64,000 nt of DNA from Atriophallophorus winterbourni. Taxonomy: Eukaryota > Platyhelminthes > Trematoda > Plagiorchiida > Microphallidae. The position numbers and the translations under genes are program-made. The stretch is from contig JACCGJ010014621.1 in NCBI GenBank assembly GCA_013407085.1, positions 1-64,000 of the forward strand. The letters run 5' to 3'. The notes beneath the pieces were generated by a model. It ran no database searches. It was given only the letters and a program-made list of their open reading frames with translations, and had not been told where the DNA came from. This document shows positions 14,601 to 61,918 of this stretch, in pieces; the first letter of the stretch is position 1, and each line of letters starts with the position of its first letter.

Positions 14601-14824
14601 ATGTATGAAATCAATAAATAATTGTAATTATATATTGAAAATCTGTTTATTTACATGATAGGGATGTTGGGCGCGTTTCACATGCCTAAAGGTGAGTCAA
14701 TGCAAATTACTTGCTAATGAAGGGTTTTGAGATATTTTCATGTAATTAAACGAGCGAACCTCAACATCTAATAAGACCAGAGCATATCTATCGTTTTATA
14801 GCACAAGTAAATAAACGAAGCAAA

Positions 14825-14858
14825 CATGCATACATACATACATACATACATACATACA

Positions 14859-14892
<34 letters not shown>

Positions 14893-14929
14893 CATACATA
14901 CATACATACATACATGCATACATACATAC

Positions 14930-14960
<31 letters not shown>

Positions 14961-14969
14961 CATACATAC

Positions 14970-15000
<31 letters not shown>

Positions 15001-15005
15001 CATAC

Positions 15006-15038
<33 letters not shown>

Positions 15039-15080
15039 CATACATACATATATACATACATACATATGCGCATATACACA
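14825..15080. repeat. (CATA)n microsatellite
   Basis: About 250 bases of CATA/TACA tetranucleotide repeat with a few CTTA and TATA interruptions. It creates long artificial frames on both strands (repeating Tyr-Ile-His-Thr and Met-Tyr-Val-Cys), which are not genes. Confidence 0.97.
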
Positions 15081-29680: not shown

Positions 29681-29885
29681 TCAATCATAGTTGTAGTTAT
29701 TTATCGCCCACCGAGTAATTCTAACCAAGACGATGAACAATTGCTAAGTTACCTGAAACGTGTACTCCTTCAGACACACACACACGTTCTCATCATGGGG
29801 GACTTTAATCTTCCAAATTTGTTCGATCGTCTTAATCCAGATGGTCATTTCGGTGCAAAGTTAATAGTTCTGTTACACACACCCA

Positions 29886-38085: not shown

Positions 38086-39526
38086 ATCCAATGATTGTTG
38101 CAAGTCATTTGGTCAAACTAAATGCAATAAAATCCCCAGGAGCGGATGGCAGTACACCGGATGTGCTCAGGTTCTGTCACCGTCAGCTTTGTGAACCGCT
38201 CTTCAGCCTGTTTAAATATTCGTTTCTAAAGGGAGTTGTACCGAAAGATTGGAAGTCCGACAAGATAACGTCTATCTTCAAACGCGGTTGCCGATCTGAC
38301 GCTTCAAATTATCGTCCCGTCACACTTTTACCTGTTATTGATAAGCTCATTGAACGTTTGGTCTCGAAAAGAATGGTTGCACACTTTGAATCGCAGAATT
38401 TGTTGCCGCCAGCGCATCATGTATTTCAATCTCATAGCTTTTGTCCGACGAATCTAATTATAGCTTTAGACAACTGGATAAAGGCGTTGGATAGAAGTTC
38501 TTGCATCAACGTCTGTTACCTAGACATTTCGAAAGATTTTGACACAGTCAATCATCATTTGCTTCTTTAAAAACTGATCCGTTTAGGAATATGTGATTCA
38601 CTCCTCTTTCTGCTGTACACAAATGATTTACCCTACCTCACATCGTTCAAAATGGTCCTGTTCGCGGAAGATATGTAAATTTGGACGCAAATAAGTCCTG
38701 CAGAGGATTGTGAGTAACTGCAAATGGGTTTGGACAGCGTGTCGAATTGGGCGGTTATGAGTGACATGTCATTCAACATACAGAAATATAAGATGCTCCA
38801 TCTTGTGAAGAATGTTCCTTGGGCATATTGATTGGGAACTGATAACCTAGCATGGAGCTCGTTAGAAAAAGATCTTGGAGTGTGGATTAGCGGGAACCGG
38901 AAGAGCACAGTGCACTGCCAGAATATATATCGACAGGCCAACAGATTGTTAGGTATCTTTCGAAGAATATTTGGAAGATTTTCTCTGGCAACGTTAACAA
39001 GGATAATGAATGTCTACCTTCGCTCTACTATGGAGTATGCGTTCGAGGTCTGGGTTCCTTGGCTGCGAAAAGACCTTGCTCTCTTCGATAAAATCTATCA
39101 TAGAGCAACAAAGTTAGTGATGGGTCTTCGCAATGTTCCGTATACCGAAAGACTGCGACGTCTGAGTCTATGTGACTTTACTCAAAGGAGGATACGACGC
39201 GATAATATTCTGACCTATAGAAATGTGTCTACCGAAGGACATGCACTAAAACTCTTGCTTGATGTGTGTGATAGAAAAGTGACACGCTGACATACCTTAT
39301 CCCTTTACGTTCCAACTTCACGTATTGATTGTCGGCGACATTTGTTCGCCGTATGAGCTATATTTCTTTGAATTCTCTACCCCAACATGTGGTGGACTCA
39401 CCTTGCTTGGCGATTTTCAAAGCGAAATTAGACATATGCGAAAGAATAACATTCGTGAGCCTTATATTTGATCTTCACTATTGCTTTTATACTATTGTAT
39501 TTTTTATATTTGAGTTCATACCGTAA
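38082..39526 (+). pseudogene. LINE ORF2, RT and C-terminal domain, broken
   Basis: 38082-38570 carries IKSPGADGSTPDVLRF, RGCRSDASNYRPVTLLPV and VCYLDISKDFDTVNH (first catalytic Asp). A deletion then removes the GVPQGSVLGP block. The next piece reads LYTNDLP and MVLFAEDM-stop: the FADD box is changed to FAED. 38832-39290 holds the post-RT region (SSLEKDLGVWISGN, IYHRATKLVMGL, QRRIRRDNIL) and 39329-39526 the last motif (LNSLPQHVVDSPCLAIFK). The altered catalytic box and the deletion make the RT dead. Confidence 0.85.
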
Positions 39527-41150: not shown

Positions 41151-41924
41151 GTCCATATCATAGAACTAACACGAGCGTTTACTTAACAAGCAACATCCAT
41201 AGGTAATTCGACGAAGTGATCGAATTCGGTGAACATCGAATGCACTTTACATTACACGCTGTAAATTTCAGTAAGAATTTATATTCATCAGTGTTATTCA
41301 CGCAGAAATCACGCCTGTCAACTATAGGATAAATGCAACTAAACATCAATTTCCACAGGTTTGTTTAGCATCGAGGTTGGCAGTCATTAAAACGACAACC
41401 TCCCTATTGCTTTTAATAATTTGGAATAATGGCCTCAAGATTTCTGGAATGTTCTTCACCTCAATCTTTCTCACACGTCGCGATTATTTTGAAGCGTTTA
41501 GCAGCTCTGATTTGGAGGATGAATGATATCGAACAAAGCCCTTTTTGTATTGAACAATTAAACTTGAATTTGTCACGCAAAACAAAATCTGGTAGCACCG
41601 AAATGATTGACGATCAAAATGTCAAGTCCACGCAAATTCATGTTGCAAAAGAATTACATCATATTTTCGTGCGAGAACCAGTGCGGAACAAGGAGCAGAT
41701 AAGAACGTCATCAGCAAATAAATGCTATGCGTACGTCAGGTTCCGTCAAAAGAGCCGAAAGTTTGAGATCTCTCGAAAGCCTCGAGAGCGCTTTACAAAT
41801 AAGAGCGAATTACCAACTTGTGGAGACTAATTCAAGTGTTAATTGTGGTTAGTTGTATTGAATATAATTAGACAGGCTGTGTGCAATACATGGTCTTGCA
41901 GTTGATAAAGGACAAAACTAATTT
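41151..41924. other. Unexplained; contains a 133-codon open frame
   Basis: A frame at 41429-41830 is basic and polar (HVAKELHHIFVREPVRNKE, YAYVRFRQKSRKFE) with no motif I can name. It might be a diverged LINE ORF1 piece, since CYAYVRFRQKS resembles the PHD end of ORF1 at 21800. Low confidence. Confidence 0.25.
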
Positions 41925-42116
41925 GTGTTATCTTTCTTTGCGCGAATTAAAGATGTTTATCGGTTATTAAATGGTATATAGGTTGCTCGTCGAACATAGT
42001 GTGGCATTATTCACGTGCATCAACTGTCCTAGATGTATATTCAATGAATAAGTAGACGATAGTGATTACGCAGGTTTCTTGCACGTGTGATTTGTCGTGA
42101 TTTTCGCCCTAGACTA
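41925..42116 (+). repeat. Leftmost piece of the tandem array, cut off from the rest by a gypsy fragment
   Basis: From CTAATTTGTGTTATCTTTCT to CCCTAGACTAT the sequence follows the array unit core (for example 44709-44912) including GTGCATCAACTGTCCTAGA at 42015. In normal units the core runs straight into AATAAACCAACTGTT; here that continuation lies at 43690, after the gypsy fragment. Confidence 0.72.
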
Positions 42117-42312
42117 TTGTGATGATATTTTACCGTTCCTGTTTTCTATTACCAACTGTATTCCTATTTCGCACCTTAGTATTACCGTTCTATATTCCAG
42201 ATTGCATACCACGGATTCTAGAAGATTAAAGCACAGTTCTCGGGCATTCGTCTTTTGATATTCTTACAATCGGATCTAACATTCATACTCATAACAATTT
42301 ATTCTTCTAGAA

Positions 42313-43255
42313 ATGGATCGATTACTTCGTCCTGAACGCTTTGAAACCGCCCCAAATGCATCTGATGCTGCAGACTCGTGGGAACATTGATTCTATACAT
42401 TCACAAACTTTCTTGATGTTATAGACTCACATAAGACAGACAAATTAAATACACTCATCCATTTCCTTTCCCCGTCTGTGTATAAACTCGTTTTTCAATG
42501 CACTTCCTATGAATCAGTTATTTCTACTCTGCAGTCAACCTACGTACAGTCGAAAAACGAAGTTTCTGCTCGACATCTACTGGCTACGTTTAAGCAAGAT
42601 TCCAGCGAAAGCCTGGATCAGTTTTTGAAGCGACTCCGCTCGCTCTCACGGGACTGTAATTTCAAATCTGTAACTGCTGTCGAGTATAAAGACGAAGCCA
42701 TACGTGATGCTTTCATTACGGGAATGTCTTCGAATTCTATCCGACAACGCTATCTTGAAAATAAATTTCTAGACATTCAAACGCTTTTGACCAAGCCAAG
42801 TCTCTAGACATGGCAGAAGCAATCAAATTCTTATACATCACTCATCCTGGAAATTTCTTGTAACACTGTGCAAACAGAAATGCATAGCCACCAAAACATA
42901 CCGATAGATTCAGTCCCAAATAAAAGGTTGGCCAGCATCAACCGGAAGCTCCAAGGCCTTTGCTACTTTTGTGGTTATGATAGACATCCTCGTCACAAGT
43001 GTCCTGCTCGTGATGCAATCTGCAAGGTATGTGGAAAAATGGGACATTTTCGCTCGGTATGTCGTTCTTCCAAATCTGACAAACATGTTGCATCTGCATC
43101 ACCATTTGTAGCATCCTATGTCATCACCGCTGCTGCTCCAGCTTGTCTTTCAAATGCAATCACTCAAGTCATTGTGAACGGTCTGAAGTTAGATGCATTG
43201 ATTGATACTGGAAGTTCAAAAAAGTTTTGTATGCGAATCGATTGTTCAGAGGCAT
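42313..43255 (+). pseudogene. Gag and start of protease of the gypsy-type element
   Basis: ATG at 42313 (MDRLLRPERFETAPNASDAA) with TGA at 42388 where WEHxFYTF is expected. The frame then runs through the Gag matrix/capsid region (KTDKLNTLIHFL, LHxLLATFKQDSSE-like, LKRLRSLSRDC). A one-base shift near 42790 is followed by two canonical CCHC zinc knuckles, CYFCGYDRHPRHKC and CKVCGKMGHFRSVC (42960-43066), and the protease active site ALIDTGSS (43198). This Gag style resembles the CsRn1-type gypsy elements of trematodes. Non-functional. Confidence 0.82.
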
Positions 43256-43479
43256 AAATTTCCTACATATCAATCACACAGCGAAATCATTTGAGCTTCT
43301 AGACAATTACGAAGCCATACCAAGGGACATTGTGTTGTTTCTTTGTCGCATAACGGAACAGTATATAACAATGTTAAGCTTTCCGTACTCCCACACTTGT
43401 GCACTGATATCCTTCTCGGACATGAGTTTTTTTAAAACATCACGAAAGTGGTCAACTCTCGTTCCAGGGCGATCGCCCT

Positions 43480-43689
43480 ACCTTCTCTGTATGTGGGCTC
43501 AAGACATCTAGTCTGCCCGCGCCTACGTTATTCGCGCATTTATCGCCTGCATGCCAACCAATACGAATCAAATCACGGCGGTTTAGCCAAGCTGACGAAT
43601 CGTTTATCAAATCTGATGTAAACAGATTAGCTAATGACGGTATAATTTGACGATCCAAGTCTCCTTGGCGTGCCCAAGTGCTCGTAACC
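43480..43689 (+). pseudogene. Ty3-type RT N-terminal fragment
   Basis: The frame through 43540-43685 reads RIKSRRFSQADESFIKSD, VNRLANDGII, stop, then RSKSPWRAQVLVT, matching the Ty3 RT fingers (RRxxxxxxxxIxxEVxxLLxxGIIxxSxSPWxxxVVxV). It ends exactly where array sequence (AATAAACCAACTG) begins. Between the protease and here most of the spacer is deleted. Confidence 0.72.
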
Positions 43690-44566
43690 AATAAACCAAC
43701 TGTTATTCAGTGAGAAAAAGAAATAATTGCAGCACGCATGTATTATAACACGATTCTTCGTGAACATTTCAACGAGTCAAAGAATTTGTTCAGGTATTTT
43801 TTCCTGTTGAAAATTTGAAATAGATTTATCAACGTTGTCATGTGAAATTGATCGAATTACACAGAAAAATTCTGGTAATTACCAGGGAATTTATCAAGTG
43901 ATTTATAAATTTCTTTCTCATCAAAGTCTTTTGAAAGATGCTGTTTGTCAGTGACTCTAGACTGTTACATCAATTTCGACCGCAATATTGATTAAATTCC
44001 ATCAGGTGATTCCCACGACAAATCCGATAGAGGACGACAGTTGCTGAATATGAGTTCAGCATATGTGATTCTACGCAAAACCAGCAATCATTCACAATGA
44101 TGGTATTTGGACTATATGTAATGAGCTTCCTTGTAAACTGTCTGACAATGAAACAAAGCGACCTCAACTGAAAATATTTCGTGTGAGGTTATTGGAGCCA
44201 GATATTAGGGAACTAATATATCATACTATATATGAGAACATATCACAGCCGGTAATATAAATTAGTTTCTTTGAGTCTACCGAGACAAATTGAAATCAGA
44301 AACCCATATAGTGAAATGAAACTTACGTGGTTGTGGAGCTACCGGGGGACCATTTGTAGGAGTAGAAGTAGAAAATATAATGAGGTGTTCGATAAATCAT
44401 CATTCCCTCTAAACAAATTAACAAACTGGAATTTGCATAACATGTTTACAATTAGGGATAGCAGCTATACTCAAATGTGTTGATATTCACACTGCTATAT
44501 TGATTTGGTAAACTGGTTTTTCAATGATGCATTTTTAAATGTGTTGCAGAATAAAAGTTTTGTGAC

Positions 44567-44590
44567 CTGTAACAGCAGCCTTTTGCCCAA
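44567..44590 (-). other. Exon-like cassette class A, copy 1 (24 nt)
   Basis: Minus strand: acceptor ...CTTTAAATGAAG, 24 nt, donor ACAG|GTCACA. In phase 1 it gives GQKAAVT between split codons. The donor is weak beyond GT. The related copy at 45777-45800 has a stop in this phase. Confidence 0.35.
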
Positions 44591-47500
44591 CTTCATTTAA
44601 AGTTAAAAGTAAAATACACGTTGGAAATATTTTTAAATATCATATAAGTTCGAACTTAAAGCAGTTTCATACGACCGGAATTCACGCCAAATTTAGATTA
44701 AGGACTCAACTAATTTGCGTTATCTATTTTTGCGTGAATTGAAGATGATTAACGTTTAATGCATGGCATATAGTGTGATGGCTGAACATATAACGGCGTG
44801 GCATTATTCTCGTGCATCAACTGTCCTAGAGTTATGTTAAATAACCAAGTAGACGCTGGAATTAAGCAGGTTAATTGCCAGTGTGATTTATCGTTTTTAC
44901 TTCCTAGAATATGTCACATGCCTGATCAATAAACCAATTGTTAGTCAACGAGAAAGAACATAACTGCAGCACTCATGTATTATAACGCGATCCTACATAG
45001 AAATGTCAACGATTCAACAGAATGTTTTAAAGACGGGGCTGTTCTAATTTAAAATACATTCTTTACGTTTGTTGTCATGTGAAATTACGCAATTTACTTA
45101 AGATAATTCGGGTAATTACCAGGGTATCTATCAAGTGATTTATAAATTGCTTTCTCATCAAAGGTTTTTAAAGATGCTGTTTGTCAGTGACTCTAGACTG
45201 TTACATCAATTTCGACTGCAATATTGATTAAGTTCCATCAGGTGATTCGCACGACATATCCGATAGAGGACGACAGTTGTTGAATATGAGATCAGCATAA
45301 CTGATTCTAGGCAAAAGTAGCAATGATTCACAATGATGGTATTTGGACTATTTGTGATGACCTTCCTTGTAAACTGTCTGACAATGAAACAAAGCGACCT
45401 CAACGGAAAATATTTCGTGTAAGGTTATTGGAGACGGATATTAGGGAAACAATATAATGTACTATATATGAGAACATATCACAGCTGGTAATATAAATTA
45501 ATTTCTCTGAGTCTACCGAGACAAATTGAAATCAGAAACCTATATAGTGAAATGAAACTTACGTGGACCTTTTGTATGAGTAGAAGTAGAAAATATAATG
45601 AGATGTTCGATAAATCATCATTCCCATTAAACAAATTAACAAACTGGAATTTGCCTTACAATTAGGGATATCAGCTTTACTCAAATGTATTGAAATTTAC
45701 ACTACTAAATTGATTTGGTAAACTGGTTTTTTAATTATGCATTTTTGAATGTGTTGCAGAATAAAAGTTTTGTGACCTGGAACAGCAGCCTTTTACCCAA
45801 CTTTATTTAAAGTTAAAAGTAAAATACACGTTAGAAATATTTTTAAATATCATATGATTTCGAACTTGAAGCAGTTTCATACAACCGGAATTCACGCCAA
45901 ATTTAGATTGAGGACTTAACTAATTTGCGTTATCTTTCTTTGCGCGAATTGGAGATGTTTAACGTTTAATGCATGGCATATAGTGTGATGGCTGAACATA
46001 TTACGGTGTGGCATTATTCTCGTGCATCAACTGTCCTAAGGGTATGTTCAATGACCAAGTAGACGGTTGGAATTAAGCAGGTTTATTGCTCGTGTGATTA
46101 AACGTTTTTCCTCCATAAACTATGTCACATGCCCGATCAACATTCCAACTGTTAGTCAACCAGAAAGAACATAACTGCAGCACTCATGTATTATAACACG
46201 ATCCTACATGGAAATGTCAACGATTCAACAGAATGTGTTTAAGACTGGGCTCTTTTAATTCGAAATACATTTTTTACGTTTGTTGTCATGTGAAATTACG
46301 CAATTTACCTAAGATAATTCGGGTAATTACCTGGGAATATATCAAGTGATTTATAAATTGCTTTCTCATCAAAGGTTTTTAAAGATGCTGTTTGTCAGTG
46401 ACTCTAGACTGTTACATCAATTTCGACTGCAATATTGATTTAATTCCATTAGGTGATTCCCACGACAAATCCGATAGAGGACGACATTTGTTGAATATGA
46501 GTTTAGCATAACTGATTCTACGCAAAAGTAGCAATGGTTCACATTGATGGCATTTGGGCTATATATGATGGCATTCCGTCTAAACTGTATAACAATGAAA
46601 CAAATCGATCTTAACGCATAATATTTCGTGTGAGGTTATTGCAGCCAGAAATTAAAGAACCAATATATCATACTATATATGAGAACATATCAGAGCTGGT
46701 AAAATAAATTAGTTTCTTTAAGTCTATCGAGACAAATTGAAATCAGAAACCCATATATGAAATGAAACCTACGTGTTGGTGGAGCTACCGGAGGACCATT
46801 TGTATGAGTAGAAGTAGAAAATATAATGAGATGTTAGATAAATCATCATTCCCACTAAACAGATTAACAAACTCGAATTTGCATAACATCTATACAATCA
46901 GGGATAGCAACTATACCTAAGTCTATTGAAATTTACACTACTAAATTGATTTGTTAACCTGTTTCGTTAATAATGCATTTTTAAATGAGTTGCAGAATAA
47001 ATTTTTTTGTGAGCAGCATTAGCAGCAGCTTCTCCAAAATCATTTAAATTTAAAAGTAAAATTCACGTTAAAAATACTTTCAAATGTCATATCAAAGTTC
47101 GAACTTTAAGCAGTTTCATACGACCGGAATTCATGCCAAATTTAGATTAAGGACCTAACTAATTTGCGTTATCTTTCTTTGCGCGAATTGAAGATGTTTA
47201 ACGTTTAATGCATGGCGTATAGTGTGATGGCTGAACATATTACGGCGTCGCATTATTCTCGTGCATCAACTGTCCTAAAGGTATGTTCAATGACCAAGTA
47301 GACGGTAGGAATTAGGCAGGTTTATTGCTCGTGTGATTAAACGTTTTTCCTCCCTAAAATTTATCACATTCCCGATCAATAAACCAACTGTTAGCCAACG
47401 AGAAAAAACATAATTGCAGCACTTATGTATTATACCACGACGACATTGGCTGAATATGAGTTCAGCATATGTGATTCTACGCAAAACCAGCAATGATTCA

Positions 47501-47955
47501 CAATGATGGTATTTGTACTATATGTAATGGCCTTCCTTGTAAAATGTTTTTCAATATTTTGTGTAAGAATAATGCAGTCATAAATAATGGAAAAAATATA
47601 TAATACTTTATTTGAGAAAATATCACAGCTGGTAATATAAATTAGTTTCTTTGAGTCTACCGAGACAAATTGAAAACAGAAATCCATATATGAAATGAAA
47701 CTTATGAGTTGGTGGAGTTAACACAGCAACTTTTGTTTGAGCATCATCACACGAAGTAGAAAATATAATGAGATGTTCGATAAATCATCATTCCCAATAA
47801 ACAAGTTAACAAACTGGAATTTGCATAACATGTTTACAATTATGGATAGCAAATATGCTTAAATTTATTCAAATTTATGCTATTAAATTGATTTGGTAAA
47901 CTGGTTTCTTTAATTATATATGCTTGAAAGTGTTGCGGAATAACATTTTACTTAC

Positions 47956-47979
47956 TTCTACCAGCGACCTTTCTTGGAA
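47956..47979 (-). other. Exon-like cassette class A, copy 2 (24 nt)
   Basis: Minus strand: acceptor ...CTTTAAATGAAG, 24 nt, donor AGAA|GTAAGT (full consensus). Phase 1 gives PRKVAGR. The flanks match other copies closely; the 24-nt interior hardly does. Confidence 0.42.
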
Positions 47980-49448
47980 CTTCATTTAAAGTTAAAATTA
48001 AAATACACTTTAGAAACATTTTCCAATGTCATATTTAAATTCGAACTTAAAGCAGTTTCATAGGAATTAAGCAGGTTTATTGCTCGTGTGATTAAACGTT
48101 CTTCCTCCCTAAAGTATGTCACATGCCCGGTCAATAAACCAACTGTTAGTCAACGAGAAAGAACATAACTGCAGCACTCTTGTATAACACGATCCTACAT
48201 TGAAATGTCAACGATTCAACAGAATGTGTTTAAGACTGGGCTCTTTTAATTTGAAATACATTTTTTACGTTTGTCGTCATGTGAATTTACGCAATTTACT
48301 TAAGATAATTCGAGTAATTTCCTGGGAATTTATCAATTAATTTATAACTTGCTTTGTCATCAAAGGTTTTTGAAAGATGCTGTTTGTCAATGACTATAAA
48401 CTGTTACATCAATTTCGACTGCAATATTGATTAAATTCCATCAGGTGATTCACACCCCGACAGTTGTTGAATACAAGTTCAGCATAACTGATTGTACGTA
48501 AAAGTAGCAATGATTCACAATGTTGCTATCTGGACTATATGTGATGGCCTTCCTTGCAAACTGTTTCCCAATGACTTCAACGAATAATATTTCGTGTAAG
48601 AATATTGCATCCAGAAATTAAGGAAACAATATATTATACATTTTACTAGAAAATATCAAAATTGGTAAAAAAATTAATTTCTTTGTGTCTACCGCGAAAA
48701 ATTGAATTCTTGTAAATGAAATTTTCATGACTGTTGTGTTTATCCTGTATTACAGTGGAACACTATTTTACCGTTGCACAATCTAGACGCACACATTTAG
48801 CATTCAGAAAGGGGTATGTTTCATAATGTTTGTAATTCACGTTCTTTGGACCATGGAAATCTAAAAACTTTGGCAGGTTAATGGAAAACATCTGCTTTCG
48901 CATCAGTCAATTTTCACCATTATATAATCAATGCGAGGAAATCCACATGGTGTGCATTTAAATTCAAAATGGGATTCCAAGCATTTTACTTTAGCAAACG
49001 ACATTTTCATACTAACATCTCAAATAGCAAATTAACCTAAAGTTATTCAAATTTACGGGACTAATTTGATTTGTAAACATGGTATTTTTCGATAATACAT
49101 TTTTTAAACATGTTTAAACTGAATTCAATGTTACATTTAGGAGGGGGCATTCTATAAATCTCGTTACCGATATGAGTTTATCATAACTAATTCTACGCAA
49201 AAGGAGCAATGATTCACATTGATGGTATTTGGGCTATATATGATGGCATTCCGTCTAAACTGTATTACAATAAAACAAAGCGATCTTAACGGATATTATT
49301 TCGTGTAAGGTTATTGCAGCTAGAAATTAAGGAACCAATATATCATACTATATATGAGAAAATATCACAGCTGGTATTATAAATTAGTTTGTTTGAGTCT
49401 ACCGAGACAAATTGAAAACAGAATCCCATATAGTGAAATGAAACTTAC

Positions 49449-49487
49449 GATTTGGTGGAAATGACTTAGCACCATTTTCTTGAGTAT
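49449..49487 (-). other. Exon-like cassette class B, copy 1 (39 nt)
   Basis: Minus strand: acceptor CTTGTGAAG, 39 nt, donor AATC|GTAAGT. Phase 1 gives TQENGAKSFPPN. A second possible acceptor (ACTCAAG) nine bases in would make a 30-nt version in the same frame. Confidence 0.42.
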
Positions 49488-49662
49488 CTTCACAAGAAGT
49501 AAACAATTTAATGAGATTTTCGATAAATCATCATTCCCACTAAACAAACTAACAAACTGGAATTTGCATAACATGTATACAATTAGGGATAGCAACTATA
49601 CCTAAGTCTATTGAAATTTACACTACTAAATTGATTTGGTAAACTGTTTTTTTAATTATGCA

Positions 49663-51235
49663 TTTTTAAATGAGTTGTAGAATAAATGTTTTTGTTAGCT
49701 GCATTAGCAGCAGCTCCTCCAACTTCATTTAAATTCAAAAGTAAAATTCACTTTGGAAATACTTTCAAATGTCATATAAGTTCGAACTTTAAGCAGTTTC
49801 ATACGACCGGAATTCATGCCACATTTAGATTAAGGACCTACCTAATTTGCGTTATCTTTCTTCACGCGAATTAAAGAAGTTTAACGTTTAATGCATGGCA
49901 TATAGTGTGATGGCTGAACATATTACGGCGTGGCATTATTCTCGTGCATCAACTGTCCTAGAGTTATGTTCAATGACCAAGTAGACGCTGGAATTAAGCA
50001 GGTTAATTGCCAGTGTGATTTATCGTATTTCCTCCCTAGAATATGTCACATGCCCGATCAATAAACCAACTGTTAGTCAATGATAAAATACACAATTGCA
50101 GCACTCATGTATTATAACACGATCCTGCGTGGAAATGTCAACGATTCAAAACACTTTATTCAAGTTTGGGCTGTTTAAATTTTAAATATATTTTTCACGT
50201 ATCATGTCATGCAAAATTACGCAAATTACTTAGAATAATTCGCGTAATTACCTGGGAATTTATCAAGTGATTTATAATTTGCCTTCTCTTCAAAGGTTGT
50301 TGCAAGATGCTGTTACATAATTTCGGCTACAATATTGATTAAACTCCATTAGGTGATTCACACCCCGTCAGTTGTTGAATACAAGTTCAGCATAACTGAT
50401 TGTACGTAAAAGTAGCAATGATTCACAATGTTTGTATCTGGACTATATGTTATGGCCTTCCTTGTAAACTGTTTTCCAATGAAACATAGCGACCTCAACG
50501 GATAATATTTCGTCTAAGGATATTGCAGCCAGAATTAATGGAAAAAATATATAATAATTTATATGAGAAAATATCACAACCGGTAATGTAAATTAGTTTC
50601 TTTGAGTTTACCGAGAAAAAATTGAATTTTGGCAGTTAAAGTTTCCAGGAATGTTGTGTTTAGCTTGTATTACAGTGGAACACTATTTTGCCGTTGCACA
50701 ATCTAGACGCACACATTTAGCATTCAGAAAGGGGTAATGTTTCAAAATGTTTGTAATTCACGTTCTTTGGACCATGGAAAAACTAAAACCTTTGGCTGGT
50801 TAATAGAAAACATCTGCTTCGGCATCAATTAATTTTCAGCAGTATATATTTCCACAAATCCACATGGTGTAGTGAATATAATGAAAAGTTCGATGAATCA
50901 TCATTCCCACTAAACAAATTAGGAAACTGGAATTTGCCTAACATGTAAACAATTAAGCATAGCAAATGTACCTAAACCTATTCAAATTTACGCGATTAAA
51001 TCTATTTGGTGAACTGGTTTTTTAATTATATGTGTTTAAAATCTATTCAGAATAAAATCTTTCTTACCTTGAGCGGCAGCAGGTTTTTTAGCTTCATTTA
51101 AAGTTAAAAGTAAAATACACATCAGAAACCTTTTCGAATGTCATATTTATATTCGAAATTAAACAGTTTCACACGACCGGAATTCACGCCAAATTTAGGT
51201 TAAGGACTTAACTAATTTGCGTTATCTTTCTTTGC
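49663..51235 (+). repeat. Higher-order duplication, left copy
   Basis: About 1.57 kb nearly identical to 54809-56381 at a constant offset of 5146 bases. Neighbouring units are far more diverged, so this is a recent duplication or gene-conversion tract inside an older array. Confidence 0.85.
51068..51091 (-). other. Exon-like cassette class A, copy 3 (24 nt)
   Basis: Minus strand: acceptor ...CTTTAAATGAAG, 24 nt, donor CAAG|GTAAGA (consensus). Phase 1 gives KKPAAAQ. Duplicated identically at 56214. Confidence 0.42.
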
Positions 51236-53254
51236 GCGAATTGAAAATGTTTAACGTTTAATGCATAGTATATAGTGTGATGGCTGAACATATAACCGCG
51301 TGGCATTATTCTCGTGCATCAACTGTCCTAGAGATATGTACAATGACCAAGTAGACGGTAGGAATTAAGCAGGTTTATTGCTCGTTGATTTATCGTTTTT
51401 CTTCCCTAGAATATGTCACATGCCCGATCAATAAACCAACTGTTAGTCAACGAGAAAGAACATAACTGCAGCACTCATGTATTATAACACGATCCTACAT
51501 AGAAATATCAACGATTCAACACAATGTGTTCAAGACTGGGCTGTTTTAATTTGAAATACATTTTTTACGTTTGTTGTCATGTGAAATTACGCAATGTACT
51601 TAAGATAATTCGGGTAATTACCTGGGAATTTTTCAAGTGATTTATTAATTGCTTTCAAATCAAAGGTTTTTAAAGATGCTGTTTGTCAGTGACTCTAGAC
51701 TGTTACATCAATTTTGACTGCAATATTGATTAAATTCCATCAGGTGAATCCGACGACAAATCCGATAGAGGTCGACAGTTGTTGATTACGAGTTTAGCAT
51801 AACTGATTCTACGCAAAAGTAGCAATGTTTCACATTGATGGTATTTGGGCTTTATATGATGGCTCTCCTTGTAGAATGTATTACAATAAAACAAAGCGAC
51901 CTCAAAGGAAAATATTTCGTGTAAGGTTATTGGAGCCATAGTATATATGAGAAAATATCACAGCTGGTAATATAAATTAGTTTCTTTGAATCTACCGAGA
52001 CAAATTGAAAACAGAATCACATATAGTGAAATGAAACTTACGTGATCTTGGAGCTACCGGAGGACCATTTGTATGAGTAGAAGTAGAAAATATAATGAGA
52101 TGTTCGATAAATCATCATTCCCACTAAACAAATTAACCAACTGGAATTTGCATAACATGTTTACATTTAGGGAAAGCAACGATACTCAAATGTATTGAAA
52201 TTTACACTACTTAATTGATTTGGTAAACTGGTTTTTTATTTATGCATTTTCAAATGTGTTGCAGAATAAAAGTTTTGTGAGCTTCATAGCAGCAGCTTCT
52301 CTAACTTCATTTAAATTTAAAAGTAAAATACACCTTAGAAATATTTTTGAATATCATATAAGTTCGAACTTAAAGCAGTTTCATACGACCGGAATTCACG
52401 CCAAATTTAGATTAAGGACTTAACAAATTTGCGTTATCTTTCTTTGCGTAAATTAAAGATGTTTAACGTTTAATACCAGGTTTATAGTGTGATGGCTGAA
52501 CATATAACGGCGTGGCATTATTCTCCTGCATCAACTGTCCTAGAGTCATGTTTAATTGACCAAGTAGACGCTGGAATTAAGCAGGTTAATTGCCAGTGTG
52601 ATTTATCGTTTTTCCTCCCTAGAATATGTCACATGCTCGATCAAGAAACCAAATGTTAGTCAACGAGAAAGAACATAACTGCAGCACTCATGTATTATAA
52701 CACGATCCTACATAGAAATATCAACGATTCAACAGAATGTGTTCAAGACTGGGCTGTTTTAATTTTAAATTTTTTTTACGTTTGTTGTCATGTGAAATTA
52801 CGCAATTTACTTAAGATAATTTAGATAATTAACTGGGAATTTATAAAGTGATTTATAAATTGCTTTCAAATCAAAGGTTTTTAAAGATGCTGTTTGTCAG
52901 TGACTCTAGACTGTTACTCATAATTTCGACTGCAATATTGATTAAATTCCATCGGGTCATTCCCACGACAAATCCGATATGAGTTTAGCATAACTGATTC
53001 TACGCAAAAGGAGCAATGATTCACATTGATGGTATTTAGGCTATATATGATGGCCTTCCGTGTAAACTGTATTACAATAAAACAAAGCGATCTTAACGGA
53101 TAATATTTCGTGTAAGGTTATTGCAGCTAGAAATTGAGGAACCAATATATCATACTATATTGAGAAAATATCACAGCTGGTAATATAAATTAGTTTGTTT
53201 GAGTCTACCGATACAAATTGAAAACAGAATCCCATATGGTGAAATGAAACTTAC

Positions 53255-53293
53255 GTCTTGGTGGAAGTGAATTAGCACCATTTTCTTGAGTAT
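53255..53293 (-). other. Exon-like cassette class B, copy 2 (39 nt)
   Basis: Minus strand: acceptor CGTGTAAAG, 39 nt, donor AGAC|GTAAGT. Phase 1 gives TQENGANSLPPR. Other units (44327, 46770, 52050, 54605, 57214) keep the GTAAGT-type donor and an open frame (such as TNGPPVAP) but have lost the acceptor AG. Confidence 0.42.
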
Positions 53294-53930
53294 CTTTACA
53301 CGAGGTAGAAAATATAATGAGATTTTCGATAAATCATCATTCCCACTAAACAAATTAACAAACTGGAATTTGCATAACATGTTTACAATTAGGGATAGCA
53401 ACTATACTCAAATGTATTGAAATTTACACTAATAAATTTATTTGGTAAACTGTTTTTTTTAATTATGCATTTTTAAATGTGTTGCAGAATAAAAGTTTCG
53501 TTAGCTGCTTTAGCAGCTGCTCCTCCAACTTCATTTAAATTTAAAAGTAAAATCCGCGTTAGAAAAAGTTTCAAATGTCATATTTAAATTCGAAATTTAA
53601 GCAAATCCGTACCACCGGAATTCACGCCAAATTTAGATTAAGGAGTTAACTAATTTGCGTTATCTTTCTTTGCGTGAATTAATGATGTTTAACGTTTAAT
53701 GCATGGCGTATATAGTGTGATGGCTGAACATATAACGGCGTGGCATTATTCTCGTGCATCAACTATCCTAGAGGTTTGTTCAATGCTCCAGTAGACGGTA
53801 GGAATTAAGCAGGTTTATTGCTCGTGTGATTGAACGATTTTCCTCCCTAGAATATGTCACATGCTCGATCAATATACCAACTGTTAGTCAATGAGAAAAT
53901 ACACAATTGCAGCACTCATGTATTATACAC

Positions 53931-54181
53931 GAACCTACATGGAAATGTCAACGATTCATAACAATTTTTCAAGGTCGGGCTGTTTAAATTTTAAATATAT
54001 TTTTTACGTATCTTGTCATGTGAAATTACGCAAATTACTCAGGATAATTCGCGTAATTAACCGGGATTTTAAAACACTTTTTTCAAGGTTGGGCTGTTTA
54101 AATTTTAAATATATTTTTCACGTATCTTGTCATGTGAAATTACGCAAATTACTCAGGATAATTCGCGTAATTACCTGTGAA
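53931..54181 (+). repeat. Local tandem duplication inside one array unit
   Basis: A stretch of about 110 bases (GGCTGTTTAAATTTTAAATA through GATAATTCGCGTAATTA) is present twice in a row in this unit only, adding to its length. Confidence 0.85.
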
Positions 54182-54808
54182 TTTATCAAGTGATTTATGG
54201 ATTGCTTTCACTTCAAAGGTTATTGCAAGATGCTGTTTGTCAGTTACTCTAGACTGTTACATTAATTTCGACTACAATATTGATTAAACTCCATCAGTTG
54301 ATTCACACCCCGACAGTTGTTGAATATGAGTTTAGCATGACTGATTCTACACAAAAGTAGCAATGATTCACTATGATGGTATTCAGACTATATGTAATGG
54401 CCTTCCTTGTAAACTGTCGCACAATCAAACAAAGCAACCATCAACGGAAAATATTTCGTGTAAGGTTACTGGAGCCAGATATTATGGAAACAATATATCA
54501 TACTATATATGAGAACATATCAGAGCTGGTAAAATAAATTAGTTTCTTTGAGTCTATCGAGACAAATTGAAATCAGAAACCCATATATTGAAATGAAACT
54601 TACGTGATCCTGGAGCAACCGGAGTACCTTTTGTATGAGTAGAAGTAGAAAATATAATGAGATGTTCGATAAATCATCATTCCCACTAAACTAATTAACA
54701 AACTGGAATTTGCATAACATGTTTACAATCAGGGATAGCAACTATACTCAAATGTATTGAAATTTACACTACTAAATTGATTTGGTAAACTGGTTTTTTA
54801 ATTATGCA

Positions 54809-56381
54809 TTTTTAAATGAGTTGTAGAATAAATGTTTTTGTTAGCTGCATTAGCAGCAGCTCCTCCAACTTCATTTAAATTCAAAAGTAAAAATCACTTT
54901 GGAAATACTTTCAAATGTCATATAAGTTCGAACTTTAAGCAGTTTCATACGACCGGAATTCATGCCACATTTAGATTAAGGACCTACCTAATTTGCGTTA
55001 TCTTTCTTTACGCGAATTAAAGAAGTTTAACGTTTAATGCATGGCATATAGTGTGATGGCTGAACATATTACGGCGTGGCATTATTCTCGTGCATCAACT
55101 GTCCTAGAGTTATGTTCAATGACCAAGTAGACGCTGGAATTAAGCAGGTTAATTGCCAATGTGATTTATCGTATTTCCTCCCTAGAATATGTCACATGCC
55201 CGATCAATAAACCAACTGTTAGTCAATGATAAAATACACAATTGCAGCACTCATGTATTATAACACGATCCTGCGTGGAAATGTCAACGATTCAAAACAC
55301 TTTATTCAAGTTTGGGCTGTTTAAATTTTAAATATATTTTTCACGTATCAAATCATGCAAAATTACGCAAATTACTTAGAATAATTCGCGTAATTACCTG
55401 GGAATTTATCAAGTGATTTATAATTTGCCTTCTCTTCAAAGGTTATTGCAAGATGCTGTTACATAATTTCGGCTACAATATTGATTAAACTCCATTAGGT
55501 GATTCACACCCCGTCAGTTGTTGAATACAAGTTCAGCATAACTGATTGTACGTAAAAGTAGCAATGATTCACAATGTTTGTATCTGGACTATATGTTATG
55601 GCCTTCCTTGTAAACTGTTTTCCAATGAAACATAGCGACCTCAACGGATAATATTTCGTGTAAGGATATTGCAGCCAGAATTAATGGAAAAAATATATAA
55701 TAATTTATATGAGAAAATATCACAACCGGTAATGTAAATTAGTTTCTTTGAGCTTACTGAGAAAAAATTGAATTTTGGCAGTTAAAGTTTCCAGGAATGT
55801 TGTGTTTAGCTTGTTTTACAGTGGAACACTATTTTGCCGTTGCACAATCTAGACGCACACATTTAGCATTCAGAAAGGGGTAATGTTTCAAAATGTTTGT
55901 AATTCACGTTCTTTGGACCATGGAAAAACTAAAACCTTTGGCTGGTTAATAGAAAACATCTGGTTCGGCATCAATTAATTTTCAGCAGTATATATTTCCA
56001 CAAATCCACATGGTGTAGTGAATATAATGAAAAGTTCGATGAATCATCATTCCCACTAAACAAATTAGGAAACTGGAATTTGCCTAACACGTAAACAATT
56101 AAGCATAGCAAATGTACCTAAACCTATTCAAATTTACGCGAATAAATCTATTTGGTGAACCGGTTTTTTAATTATATGTGTTTAAAATCTATTCAGAATA
56201 AAATCTTTCTTACCTTGAGCGGCAGCAGGTTTTTTAGCTTCATTTAAAGTTAAAAGTAAAATACACATCAGAAACCTTTTCAAATGTCATATTTAAATTC
56301 GAAATTAAACAGTTTCACACGACCGGAATTCACGCCAAATTTAGGTTAAGGACTTAACTAATTTGCGTTATCTTTCTTTGC
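54809..56381 (+). repeat. Higher-order duplication, right copy
   Basis: Right partner of 49663-51235 (offset 5146). The junction at about 56385 switches to sequence resembling the 52450 unit (AACAGGTTTATAGTG against ACCAGGTTTATAGTG), so the array is a mosaic. Confidence 0.85.
56214..56237 (-). other. Exon-like cassette class A, copy 4 (24 nt)
   Basis: Identical to the cassette at 51068, with the same consensus donor CAAG|GTAAGA and acceptor. It lies within the duplicated segment. Confidence 0.42.
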
Positions 56382-58911
56382 GTAAAGTAAACATGTTTAA
56401 CGTTTAATAACAGGTTTATAGTGTGATGGCTGAACATATAAAGGCGTGGCATTAGTCTCGTGCATCAACTGTCCTAGAGTCATGTTTAATTGACCAAGTA
56501 GACGCTGGAATTAAGCAGGTTGATTGCCAGTGTGATTTATCGTTTTTCCTCCCTAGAATATGGCACATGCCCGATTAATAAACCAACTGTTACTCAATGA
56601 GAAAACACATAATTGCATCACTCATGTATTATAACACGAACCTACATGGAAATGTCAACGATTCAAAGCAATTTATTCAAGGTTGGGCTGTTTAAATTTC
56701 AAATATATTTTTCACGTAACTTGTCATGTGAAATTACGCAAATTACTCAGGATAATTCGCGAAATTACTTGGGAATTTATCAAATAATTTATAACTTGCT
56801 TTGTCATCAAAGGTTTTTGAAAGATGCTGTTTGTCAGTGACGCTAGACTGTTACATCAATTTCGACTGCAATATTGATTAAATTACATCAGGTGATTCCC
56901 AGGACAAATCCGATAGAGGACGACAGATGTTGAATATGAGTTTAGCATAACTGTTTCTACGCAAAAGTAGCAATGATTCACAATGATGATATTTGGACTA
57001 TATGTGATGGCCTTCCCTGTAAACTGTCTCACAATGAAAAACAAAGCGAACTCAACGGAAAATATTTCGTGTAAGGTTATTGGAGCCAGATATTAGGGAA
57101 CCAATATATCATAATATATATGAGAACATATCACAGCTGGTAATATAAATTAGTTTCATTGAGTCTACCGAGACAAATTGAAATCAGAAACCCATATAGT
57201 GAAATGAAACTTACGTGATCGTAGAACTACCGGAATAGCTTTTGTATGAGTAGAAGTAGAAAATATAATGAGATGTTCGATAAATCATCATTCCCACTAA
57301 ACAAATTAACAAACCGCAATTTGCATAACATGTTTACAATTAGGGACAGCAACTATACTTAAATGTATTGAAATTTACACTACTAAATTGATTTGGTAAA
57401 CTGGTTTTTTAATTATGCATTTTTATTGTGTTGCAGAATAAAAGTTTCGTTAGCTGCATTAGCAGCAGCTCCTCCAACTTCTTTTAAACTTAAAAGTAAA
57501 ATACACGTTAGAAAAACTCCCAAATGTCTTATTTAAATTCGAAATTTAAGCAGTTTCATACGACTGGAATTCACGCCAAATTTAGATTAAGGACTTAACT
57601 AATTTGCGTTATCTTTTTTTGCGCGAATTAAATATGTTTAACGTTAAATGCATGGCATATAGTGTGATGGCTGAACATATAACGGCGTGGCATTATTCCC
57701 GTGCATCAACTGTCCTAGTGGTATGTTCAATGACCAAGTAGATGGTAGGAATTAAGCAGGTTTATCGCTCGTGTGATTAAACGTTTTCCCTCCCTAGAGT
57801 ATGTCACATGCATGATCAAATAACCAACTGTTATTCAACGAGAAAAAACATAACTGCACCACCCATGTATTATAACACGATCCTACATGGAAATATCAAC
57901 GATCCAAAAGACATTGTTCAGGGAGTTTTCGCTGTTGAAAATTTGAAATAGTTTTCTTTACGTTGTCATGTGAATTTAAGCAAATTACTGAGAATTCTTC
58001 TGGTAATTACCGGGGAATATATCAAGTGATTTATTAGTTGCTCCCTCATCAACGGTTTTTTGAAAGATGCTGTTTGTCATTTGACCTAGAATATTACAAT
58101 AATTTCAACTGCAATATTGATTTAATTCTATTACGTGATTCACATCTCAAATCCGATAAAGGAGCACTGTTGTAGAAAGCGAGTTTAGCCTATCTGATTT
58201 TACGCAAATGTAGCAATGTTTTCCAATGTTGCTATCTGGACTATATGTGATGGCATTCCTTGTAAACTGTTACCCAATGACTTCAACGGATAATGTTTCG
58301 TGTAAGAATATTGCATCCAGAAATAAAGGAAAAAATATATTATACATTTTATTAGAAAATATCACAATCGGTAAAATAAATTAATTTCTTTGTGTCAACC
58401 GCGAAAAATTGAATTCTTGTAAATGAAATTTCCATGACTGTTGTGTTTATCTTGTATAACGGTGTAACACTATTTTACAGTTGCACAATCTAGACGCACA
58501 AGTTTAGCATTCAGAAAGGGCTACGTTTCAAATTGTTGCTAATTGACGTGCTTTGGCGCATGGAAAAACTAAACCTTTGGCAGGTTAATGGAAAACATCT
58601 GCCTTCGTATCAATCAATTTTCAGCAATAAATATTTCCACAAATCTACGTGGTGTTCATTTAAATTAAGAAAAGTGATTCTTATCATTACACTCTAGCCA
58701 ACGATATATTTAAGAAACCATCTTAATTGGCATTTAAACAAAACACATTTTTAATCTTAAACAGATATATTATAAAAATATCTTATAAAATTTGACCCTA
58801 GTTGCAACCAGGTTTTGCAAACTTTAAATACCATTTAATATATTCCGTTTCAAGTAACATGTACCGCTATCCTATTTGGACTACTGTTAGCTCACTGTTG
58901 ACAATCTGACG

Positions 58912-58963
58912 ATATACATACATACATACATACATATATACATACATATGTATGTATGTATAT
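58912..58963. repeat. TACA/TGTA microsatellite forming an inverted repeat
   Basis: ATACATACATACATAC runs into TATGTATGTATGTATAT, so the tract can fold on itself. It splits the last piece of the array from the rest. Confidence 0.85.
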
Positions 58964-59299
58964 ATAATCGAAATCAGAAACTCATATAGTAAAGTGAAAC
59001 GCACGTGGTCGAAAATATACGTTAGAATGTCATTTGCAAATTCTAAATTACATTAATTTTACACTACATAAACTCACGCAAAATCAATTTCATCTTTCCC
59101 TGTTAAATATATTGAAACAGATATTGAAGAGAAAAAACAATTTGGTGGTTCTTCTGTAGGAAACAAAAATGATTTTTAGGATCGCACGCTTTTTACTTTC
59201 CGCATTCCTACGTTTTCTACAAGAAAAGCGGTATATAAAAAATATCATTTGTTTTCTTTCTAAATATGTTGGTTCCTTTACTTGCCGACATGATACACA

Positions 59300-59518: not shown

Positions 59519-60190
59519 GAATCCTCCTCCTCCTCCTCAGACTTCTCCGTGCCGGGTGGCACATGAGGCGAAGAGAACCCCACGCCAGTAGTTCCGGTCA
59601 TTCACGCTGCTTCCGTTGCCGTCTGCACCGTGAATCCTTGTGCATGTAGTTCGCGTTCCAACGTTCTGCGCCAAGTTTCCTTGGGCTTTCCTCGTTTTTG
59701 TTTACCTTACGGAAGCCAGTGAATGGCTACCTTCGTATGCGAACTGGGATCCATCCTGCAGAAATAACCGGACCATCTCAACCGTCGTCTTTTGATTACG
59801 GTAGATACCACCTCAAAACTTGTTTTTCGCAGTAGCTTTTCATTTGAAATGGTGTGTGGCCAAAAAATCCGTAGAATCCTTCTCAAGCACTTAGTTTGAA
59901 ACACGTTCACTCTGCGCTCAATGGCAGCGGTCGTCTTCCAGCTTTCCGATGCATACAGCAACACACTCAAAACGTTGCTCTTGAAGAGTCTGATCTTCGT
60001 GATAATGCATAAAGCGGAGGATTTCCAAATGGAATTCAGCATGCAGAATGCTTGGTTCGCCTTCCCGATCCTTCTCTTGACCTCATCTTCACAGTCACCA
60101 TTTAGAGACAGTTTGTTCCCAAGGTAGACTGTATCTGTAACCTCACTGAGCTATTGACCGTCCACGAACACTGGTGGAATCACTAATGAA
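59519..60190 (-). mobile_element. RTE-clade LINE, 3' end of ORF2 plus tail
   Basis: Minus-strand frame. TVYLGNKLSLNGDCEDEVKR and IGKANQAFCMLNSIW (about 60130-60000) lead into IKTRLFKSNVLSVLLY-like sequence (59707-60042, TKIRLFKSNVLSVLLYASES, CLRRILRIFW). The C-terminus follows: GKPKETWRRTLEREL and NxYWRG-like NYW (about 59690-59560). It ends in a GGA-rich tail (TCC repeat on the plus strand at 59519-59540), typical of short 3' repeats of RTE elements. 5' truncated at about 60190. Confidence 0.82.
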
Positions 60191-60540: not shown

Positions 60541-61474
60541 GATGTCCTTTTTTATCCTCGGTTGAACACGGTTTTGCTTTGTATGATGTCCTTCAGGCTT
60601 CCTTTAATCTAACCGCCGATGACATTTTCGAGGGTCGTACATATCGGACCAAATGCTAAATATATCCAAATCGCTCTGTAAGCGCAAACAATCCAGGCAT
60701 TACCTGATTTGGATACAAAGTTTAGTTAGCATTTTCCGCATAAATAACCATGTTGGTTGCGTTGTATTTCAGCAAAAAACAAACATATTATTAAAATCAA
60801 TATAAAATGATCACTACGATCTGATTTATACCGTTCAGTTCGTCTTGATAATCGATCAAAGATAATTATTGTTTACCCAGTGAGATTTGGCCAAGCGGGC
60901 GTAATATAAACTACTGATTTCATATCCCCCGCCATGCATGCAGCATTATGTCATACAGTCATTATGTCTCCAGTTCGTCTTGGTATTGTTCCGTAAGATT
61001 TGGCATCTAACATTCAGCCAAATACCCGTATTTGCAGTTTCTCCTATAAAACTCGCCGCACAAATTTGGACATCATATCTCGAATTTTGTGTACGATATT
61101 TCCACTGTGATATCGTTTTCGGATCTTCATGGTACTTTACCTAACTATTGATTACAGATAGAGGGGTCTTATACATGTAAATAAATAAATATCATAGCTA
61201 ACCAAATTATCCGCTGATTAATCTAATATGAACTCGGAAAAACTGTGGCATATATTTTTTAAATTTAAAACATGAAGCAAAGTAAACACGTGAACATTGA
61301 GATAAATTTAATAAAATACGTACATTATTCTTATCATATTCTAAGTCGACCGACTCTGTATAAAGATAAAATATTACGTTAAAAACAGTGGCATTCAAGT
61401 AAAACACTATTTCAAGACTCCCAGAACCTGAGTATTGCTGTATCCAGCTAATGATGCACACAGACACAAACCAG
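60541..61474. other. No gene recognised
   Basis: AT-rich spacer between LINE fragments and the 5' LTR. Frames of 60-90 codons on both strands have no motif or splice context. Confidence 0.45.
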
Positions 61475-61918
61475 TGTGATGTGTTAGTGCGAGGGATGTG
61501 AGCAACACATTAAATAATTGGTAATTTTGCGTCTAGGATCTCTACTTCTGGGGACATTTTGAATATCATACAAAAATTCACTGGGAATAAAACAAAATTT
61601 AAACAGAAGGGAATCATTCAGTCGTAATTTATTTATATCTAGCGATACGCTTTTATACAATCCTTTAAATTGGAACTATTAACTGTTAAACTTAATGGAC
61701 ACACGCTAAACTCATGGAAAACATACGCGGACACATTCTTTGTGCGATAGAGCATTGTGAGGATTGTTTGATTAATAATCAATACTGCTCAATAATTCCG
61801 TAATTCAAATTCATGTTGTTAAAGCTACATTATTCAATACATACTGTAATTCGAGTGAGCATCGTATGTTCTCACTTACATTTTTGGGTTAGTCATTCAA
61901 TTCAATTCAATTATCACA
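61475..61918 (+). mobile_element. 5' LTR of a gypsy-like element
   Basis: Begins TGTGATGTGTTAGTGCG and ends ...CAATTATCACA, two bases before a primer-binding site. About 444 bases, with TG...CA ends. No second LTR in the window and no confirmed target duplication, so the 5' edge is inferred from the TGT start. Confidence 0.6.

What the first reader, a model, noticed from the sequence alone, without database searches (positions are those of the whole stretch)
43690..59030. Tandem array whose units carry hypervariable, symmetric micro-exon-like cassettes on the minus strand
Class A cassettes are always 24 nt (44567, 47956, 51068, 56214) and class B 39 nt (49449, 53255). Both are phase 1 at each end, so any combination keeps frame. 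In the best copies they sit between AG and GTAAG-type donors. The flanks are well conserved between units, but the interiors have changed far more: A gives GQKAAVT, PRKVAGR or KKPAAAQ; B gives TQENGAKSFPPN or TQENGANSLPPR against TNGPPVAP elsewhere. Conserved introns around fast-changing tiny symmetric exons is the plan of flatworm micro-exon genes, which secrete variable peptides. Several other copies have lost the donor (CTAACA, CTCACA) or acceptor, so part of the array is pseudo-exonic. That this is a live gene is inference.
Basis: partly seen in the sequence, partly recalled or inferred. Interest (0 to 1): 0.86.

Follow-up and report, generated by a model that had tools for sequence, protein, structure and literature searches.

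The report
Tandem fast-changing micro-exons in a fluke
A parasitic fluke's genome carries tandem arrays of tiny, frame-preserving candidate exons whose short peptides change about twice as fast as the introns around them, the pattern of flatworm micro-exon genes, although no transcript has been seen yet.

Summary
On the minus strand of 43.7-58.4 kb a ~1.2 kb unit is tandemly repeated; units carry an A and usually a B cassette. In 47 regular units the two most divergent 24-nt windows fall on these cassettes (0.30, 0.34; unit mean 0.12). The genome, of a fluke whose nearest COI is Prosthogonimus, has such arrays on at least 12 contigs. A cassettes with intact AG and GTAA sites diverge 1.9 times as much as their flanks (pN/pS 1.6); weak-donor copies 0.9, dead-donor copies 0.7 once out-of-register ones are dropped. 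Phase-1 stops: 0 of 27 intact, 16 of 20 weak, 4 of 51 dead. B exons seem to move their acceptor in steps of three. A 36-nt candidate exon upstream shows the same signature (0.37 against 0.12) and matches only array loci. Best reading: partly decayed micro-exon genes of the flatworm MEG type, translated now or until recently. No transcript, signal peptide or terminal exon was found; homology to named MEGs was not tested. New member of a known kind.

The parts
43679..58430 (-). tandem array of ~1.2 kb units, sense strand minus
   Evidence: BLAST of one unit against the window, 77-100% identity
56214..56237 (-). A cassette, 24 nt, KKPAAAQ, GTAAG donor
51068..51091 (-). A cassette, 24 nt, KKPAAAQ, GTAAG donor
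47956..47979 (-). A cassette, 24 nt, PRKVAGR, GTAAG donor
44567..44590 (-). A cassette, 24 nt, GQKAAVT, weak GTCAC donor
45777..45800 (-). A cassette with in-frame stop and weak GTCAC donor, decayed
57454..57477 (-). A cassette, donor lost (CTAAC)
54845..54868 (-). A cassette, donor lost (CTAAC)
53505..53528 (-). A cassette, donor lost (CTAAC)
52282..52304 (-). A cassette, best read as 23 nt, donor lost
49699..49722 (-). A cassette, donor lost (CTAAC)
47014..47037 (-). A cassette, acceptor and donor lost
53255..53293 (-). B cassette, 39 nt (or 30 from an inner AG), TQENGANSLPPR
49449..49487 (-). B cassette, 39 nt (or 30 from an inner AG), TQENGAKSFPPN
57215..57238 (-). B cassette in its 24-nt form, IPVVLRS
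54604..54627 (-). B cassette in its 24-nt form, TPVAPGS
52042..52053 (-). B cassette, inferred 12-nt form after GGTAG
   Evidence: class profile
46773..46784 (-). B cassette, inferred 12-nt form, GTAGG donor
44327..44338 (-). B cassette, inferred 12-nt form
45563..45568 (-). B cassette after an 18-nt deletion, possible 6-nt exon
47706..47744 (-). B cassette, donor lost (ATAAG)
61320..61355 (-). candidate upstream exon of 36 nt (32 nt with the nearer GT), conserved acceptor TTTTATCTTTATACAG
   Evidence: four-locus alignment; most divergent of 656 windows of 36 nt in three loci, 0.37; coordinates; five genome places, all at array loci
60762..61381 (-). upstream block matched only at six array contigs and at C12100 (not examined); the stretch after it is shared with a repeat found elsewhere
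41904..42117 (-). fragment of a further unit, cut off by a gag-bearing insert at about 42118-43678

Best explanation
The array is the internal part of a flatworm micro-exon gene of MEG type, one of several paralogous loci in this fluke. Shown from sequence: symmetric phase-1 cassettes of 6-39 nt between conserved introns, a phase-1 open frame in the intact copies, and faster change in intact A cassettes than in introns or in splice-dead A copies. Inferred: the cassettes are spliced as interchangeable in-frame peptide modules into a variable, probably secreted protein; unit duplication, loss of splice sites and stepwise acceptor shifts change the repertoire, and selection, probably from the host, favours new peptides.
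For: In 47 regular units the two most divergent 24-nt windows fall on B (0.343) and A (0.299), mean 0.119. Inside/flank ratio for A: intact 1.92 [1.65-2.32], 25 distinct copies; weak donor 0.91, 15; dead donor in register 0.71, 35. At flank divergence 0.10-0.15 intact, weak and dead pairs differ inside by 0.259, 0.075, 0.084. The order holds with any one of nine contigs left out. pN/pS 1.59 [1.25-2.04], pN/flank 2.16 in intact A. Phase-1 stops: 0 of 27 intact against 16 of 20 weak; 0 of 14 against 6 of 9 distinct, Fisher p 0.0008; the other frames of intact A have stops in 2 and 11 of 14. The upstream 36-nt candidate diverges 0.37 against 0.122 for the other columns and 0.026 for the 26 columns before it, in three loci, and matches five genome places, all at array loci.
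Against: No RNA data could be searched. No convincing signal-peptide exon in the upstream DNA read, no clear terminal exon (by eye). Of 98 A sites on nine contigs only 27 are intact. Dead-donor copies have few stops, 4 of 51, so broken splice sites and stops do not go together throughout. With the out-of-register dead copies kept, the dead ratio is 1.60 [0.96-2.22], median pair 0.98. Synonymous divergence in intact A also exceeds the flanks, 1.36 [1.06-1.78]. Below flank distance 0.05 intact pairs show no excess (0.020). B sites lacking the -24 acceptor are still hypervariable, 2.61, which needs the acceptor-shift reading. In 13 longer units of mixed kind the top window (0.32) lies outside A (0.286). 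Sites were found by flank patterns, which favours conserved flanks. Copies are related; bootstraps and permutations do not remove that.
Confidence: 0.72

Rival explanations
1. A dead or dying relic: a former micro-exon gene whose array now spreads as a satellite-like repeat without a product; the excess divergence is inherited from its live past.
For: 71 of 98 A copies lack a good donor or acceptor; retroelement ORFs surround the array; a gag-bearing insert cuts it; no first or last exon found; the youngest intact pairs show no excess.
Against: 0 of 27 intact A cassettes have a phase-1 stop; intact pairs show excess divergence at flank distance 0.05-0.10 (0.117 against 0.056 for dead pairs); 68 of 77 B sites keep GT at the donor.
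Confidence: 0.16
2. A conventional secreted or structural gene, or a composite like schistosome VAL-6, whose repeat region has micro-exons; the repeats are one part of a larger domain protein.
For: VAL-6 is described as having MEG-like small symmetrical exons (PMC4350168, passage); gene ends are unknown here.
Against: The CAP family has 4 matches in the genome, none on an array contig. Of the 30 window ORFs of 120 aa or more, the 20 scanned gave retroelement or transposase domains, DUF6451, two sub-threshold zinc-finger matches (PHD, zinc knuckle) or nothing. Exon-by-exon search and broken contigs can miss exons.
Confidence: 0.08
3. Not exons: the cassettes are mutation or conversion hot spots in a tandem repeat, and the splice-like flanks are incidental.
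For: Synonymous sites are somewhat raised too; duplicated units can exchange sequence.
Against: A hot spot would also act in dead-donor copies, which show none once in register (0.71); of the three frames only phase 1 is free of stops in every intact class; a non-repeated upstream stretch shows the same signature; hypervariable edges follow in-frame AGs.
Confidence: 0.04

Closest known systems
Flatworm micro-exon genes (MEGs) of Schistosoma, Trichobilharzia, Echinococcus and Hymenolepis
   Same: runs of tiny symmetric exons, raised dN/dS, transposon-rich surroundings (PMC4350168, PMC8293314, PMC5825161, PMC7653826: sections or passages seen)
   Different: another fluke lineage; the introns here are themselves tandem repeats; signal peptide and expression not shown; no sequence homology tested
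Sm10.3 / MEG-4, tandemly repeated exons encoding 81-base repeats
   Same: sets of small exons repeated in tandem so that each set adds one peptide repeat (only the title of the 1988 paper was seen, in the reference list of PMC3961193; the rest is recalled)
   Different: two exon sites per unit here (24 nt and 39/24/12/6 nt), many of them splice-dead; homology untested
VAL-6 of schistosomes
   Same: MEG-like small symmetrical exons (PMC4350168, passage)
   Different: no CAP match on an array contig

Membership tests
Micro-exon gene (MEG) | exons short (at most 36 nt in PMC8293314, under 70 nt in PMC7653826), divisible by three, symmetric | tested here: met
   24, 39/30, 24, 12, 6 and upstream 36 nt, phase 1 at both ends; the 39-nt form exceeds the stricter limit; predicted exons only
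Micro-exon gene (MEG) | at least 7 exons, half or more micro, runs of 4 or more micro-exons (rule of PMC7653826) | tested here: inconclusive
   the window has 8 cassettes with AG and GTAAG (3 A, 5 B), counted past the broken ones; no transcript
Micro-exon gene (MEG) | signal peptide | tested here: inconclusive
   no convincing conserved candidate in the upstream DNA read; the first exon may lie further off
Micro-exon gene (MEG) | alternative splicing of symmetric exons gives protein variants | not testable with these tools
   no RNA data
Micro-exon gene (MEG) | raised dN/dS | tested here: met
   pN/pS 1.59 [1.25-2.04] in 25 distinct intact A cassettes
Micro-exon gene (MEG) | sequence homology to a named MEG family | not tested
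   no schistosome MEG sequences were in hand; joining cassettes for a search was left out
VAL-6-type composite gene | CAP domain in the same gene | tested here: not met
   4 genome matches to PF00188, none on an array contig; the search goes exon by exon on broken contigs

The most novel reading that the evidence does not exclude
B micro-exons change length by moving their acceptor in steps of three: copies with AG at -39 or -24 vary from about -24 on, copies that lost it vary mainly in the last 12 nt behind a conserved GGTAG, and 18-nt deletions leave 6 nt. Frame-locked acceptor sliding together with diversifying selection would be a way to shape exon size and peptide at once, in a fluke lineage for which my searches showed no MEG report.
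Probability: 0.35. Interest if true: 0.72.

Novelty: new member of a known kind. Interest (0 to 1): 0.6.

Why it matters
MEGs are described from schistosomes, a bird schistosome (PMC5825161) and tapeworms (PMC7653826), and have been called restricted to schistosomes (PMC8293314) or to platyhelminths (PMC4350168). A diversifying, tandemly built micro-exon locus in a fluke near Prosthogonimus would suggest that MEG-type variation is a wider flatworm device. Because splice-dead and intact copies lie side by side, the array is a natural experiment: it helps to separate selection on the spliced peptide from mutation, and lets the birth, death and resizing of micro-exons be followed.

Tried and rejected
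Extra cassettes elsewhere in the unit: in the 47 regular units the next peaks are 0.24 at the alignment edge and 0.21 or less. In 13 distinct longer units of mixed kind the top window (0.32) lies in the ~300-bp segment that replaces B; aligning 25 distinct copies of that segment I saw, by eye, no AG-to-GT stretch with a variable interior. First exon: hydrophobic ATG-to-donor candidates at window 61617, C11753:54532, C7865:19636 and C8363:60547 each turned up in one locus or its allele only; three ATG frames are shared by C8363, C11753 and C7865, and none looked like a signal peptide to me. Terminal exon: a four-way alignment downstream of the array showed no clear candidate by eye. CAP/VAL rival. 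Host contamination: the three further COI-like loci tested are closer to the main COI (best pieces 81-95%) than to Prosthogonimus (68-79%), so they look like nuclear copies. The RNA family scan gave no match at gathering score. The duplicates were not dated.

In the dead-donor A class I dropped six peptide classes that are out of register or carry indels (51 to 45 sites, 41 to 35 distinct); with all kept the ratio is 1.60 [0.96-2.22] and the median pair ratio 0.98, so the low mean depends on that clean-up. My A scan misses copies: the pattern search shows GTAA copies at C11753:73946 and 80673, C11395:7596, C8363:65114 and C4618:22635 that are not in the counts (25 hits, 23 of them on array contigs; the reversed control pattern gave 13). 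In one search the B set still held decoy intron sites; filter them, though one decoy remains. The 47 units were not freed of near-identical copies. The sliding part failed and was rerun.

Full report
Where it is. The window lies in an unnamed 537-Mb genome of 15,840 contigs. Its intact cytochrome oxidase gene is nearest to Prosthogonimus cuneatus (79% identity), then Tanaisia (70%) and other flukes; Trichobilharzia is at 67% and Schistosoma japonicum at 65% (best 120 of 8000 listed). Three further COI-like loci tested are closer to this gene than to Prosthogonimus, so they look like nuclear copies. The organism is therefore taken as a digenean fluke and not a schistosome.

What is there. A unit of about 1.2 kb is repeated from 43679 to about 58430. 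In the minus-strand direction a unit has an A site (acceptor TTTAAATGAAG, 24 nt, donor) and usually a B site whose donor lies about 235-275 bp further on, in the context GTAAGTTTCATTTCA (the sites were found by these flanks, so the flanks are partly conserved by choice). The window has 11 A and 9 B sites. On the plus strand 0 of 11 A cassettes have AG and GT at their ends. Similar arrays lie on C11753, C7865, C8602, C8363, C11395, C10585, C8387, C4830, C5818, C4618 and C12761; that search scored only 40 of 154 candidates, so this is a lower bound. I fetched the first eight of these, in part. C11753 matches the window at 99.2% over its 5' flank but at 92% over the 3' flank and carries a longer array, so it is a haplotype or a recent duplicate.

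More than chance. In 47 units of regular length from nine contigs (near-identical copies kept), the two most divergent 24-nt windows of the whole unit fall on B (0.343) and A (0.299), against a mean of 0.119 and a standard deviation of 0.051 between windows. In the window alone A is 0.346 inside against 0.160/0.162 outside, B 0.273 against 0.095/0.099. Against this, in 13 longer units of mixed kind the top window (0.32) lies elsewhere and A is second (0.286).

Intact against broken copies. Of 98 A sites on nine contigs, 27 have AG and a GTAA donor, 20 a weak GTC-type donor, 51 no GT. Intact copies (25 distinct) diverge inside 1.92 times as much as in their flanks [1.65-2.32]; weak ones (15) 0.91; dead ones in register (35) 0.71. 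Without removing out-of-register dead copies (41) the ratio is 1.60 [0.96-2.22] and the median pair 0.98. At flank divergence 0.10-0.15 intact, weak and dead pairs average 0.259, 0.075 and 0.084; at 0.05-0.10, 0.117, 0.076 and 0.056; below 0.05, 0.020, 0.033 and 0.007, with no excess in the youngest intact pairs. Leaving out any one contig keeps the order. In intact copies pN/pS is 1.59 [1.25-2.04], pN/flank 2.16, pS/flank 1.36. A mutation hot spot would be expected to act in broken copies too, so the natural reading is selection on translated peptides, though the raised synonymous rate shows that this is not all of it.

Frame. In the phase-1 frame 0 of 14 distinct intact A, 0 of 5 B39 and 0 of 8 B24 cassettes contain a stop. 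The other two frames give 2 and 11 of 14, 0 and 4 of 5, 4 and 2 of 8. Weak-donor A copies have stops in 16 of 20 (6 of 9 distinct), intact ones in 0 of 27 (0 of 14 distinct; Fisher p 0.0008). Dead-donor A copies have stops in only 4 of 51; they are mostly near-identical copies of one form.

Acceptor sliding. Of 77 B sites, 7 have AG at -39, 14 at -24, 17 fall in a class meant for an 18-nt deletion leaving 6 nt (one of these, C8602:1464, is not that deletion), 30 have GT but no AG at those places, and 9 have no GT. The 30-site class is still hypervariable (2.61). In it (26 distinct, one a decoy) divergence is 0.147 at -24 to -13 and 0.329 at -12 to -1, and 24 of 26 have AG just before -12; in the AG(-24) class (12 distinct) the two halves are alike, 0.340 and 0.326. 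On distinct 24-mers (8 and 17) a label permutation gives p 0.001, and 0.006 without the most unlike types (5 and 17). Of 85 AGs in this stretch 67 would give an exon divisible by three. These copies are related, so the p values are rough. In the -39 class positions -39 to -25 hardly vary (0.022), so an exon of 30 nt from an inner AG is also possible there.

Upstream. A block at window 60762-61381 is matched only at C9199, C11753, C7865, C11395, C8363, C4830, all array contigs, and at C12100, which I did not examine; the stretch after it belongs to a repeat found on many contigs. In it a conserved acceptor, TTTTATCTTTATACAG, is followed by 32 or 36 nt with a phase-1 open frame in four loci, of which C11395 and C8363 are near-identical. 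In the three distinct loci the 36 nt diverge 0.37, the 26 columns before them 0.026, the other columns 0.122; of 656 windows of 36 columns this register ties for the highest value, and the best window that does not overlap it is 0.241. A 111-bp query over it matches five genome places, all at array loci. With the 36-nt reading the exon is symmetric, phase 1, like the cassettes. It stands alone, outside the repeats, so array dynamics do not explain it. It remains a candidate until seen in RNA.

Comparison. MEGs are described as genes of small symmetric exons that can be skipped without loss of frame, with signal peptides, raised dN/dS and transposon-rich surroundings (PMC4350168, introduction and passages; PMC8293314, passages). 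They are known from Schistosoma, Trichobilharzia (PMC5825161, outline and one section) and tapeworms (PMC7653826, passages). PMC10526429 was read in outline and half of one section, PMC3961193 in passages. The founding paper of 2010 is not held. My searches 'micro-exon gene' with Fasciola, Opisthorchis or Clonorchis (1,520 papers with two of four terms, 30 listed, 5 of these with the MEG term, all with schistosome titles), with monogenean and flatworm (1 paper), with tapeworm and genome (6), and 'microexon genes' with trematode (2) showed in their listings no report from a fluke of this group; the library is partial. The locus works like a MEG by anatomy and selection; membership is not proven because signal peptide, transcript and homology are missing.

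Noticed in passing
window 42118-43678: A gag-bearing retroelement fragment (Retrotrans_gag; zinc knuckle below cut-off) sits between the last full unit and a unit fragment at 41904-42117.
   Followed up: partly
C8363:91518-92896: A ~243-bp tandem repeat, five to six copies at about 99%, lies where the window runs on near 42.39 kb; it shares about 105 bp with window 61405-61512 and 5197-5634.
   Followed up: partly
window 27431-29627: Same-strand copy (92%) of a block that lies upstream of the arrays in C11753, with no array after it in this window. Its copy number search did not complete.
   Followed up: no
window 53965-54173: A 114-bp tandem duplication (1.8 copies, 97%) inside one unit.
   Followed up: no
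window 14824-15066: ACAT microsatellite of about 61 copies.
   Followed up: no
window 289-1254, 26166-26699, 29868-31091, 36721-38570: Reverse transcriptase and endonuclease ORFs of retroelements (Pfam RVT_1, one of them below cut-off, and Exo_endo_phos).
   Followed up: partly
window 32131-32514: Tc5-type transposase DNA-binding domain on the minus strand.
   Followed up: no
window 59707-60150: Minus-strand ORF with DUF6451, in a high-copy repeat between the upstream block and the array.
   Followed up: no
G000, 24 COX1 matches on 8 contigs: COI-like copies with stops beside one intact gene; the three tested look like nuclear copies of mitochondrial DNA.
   Followed up: partly
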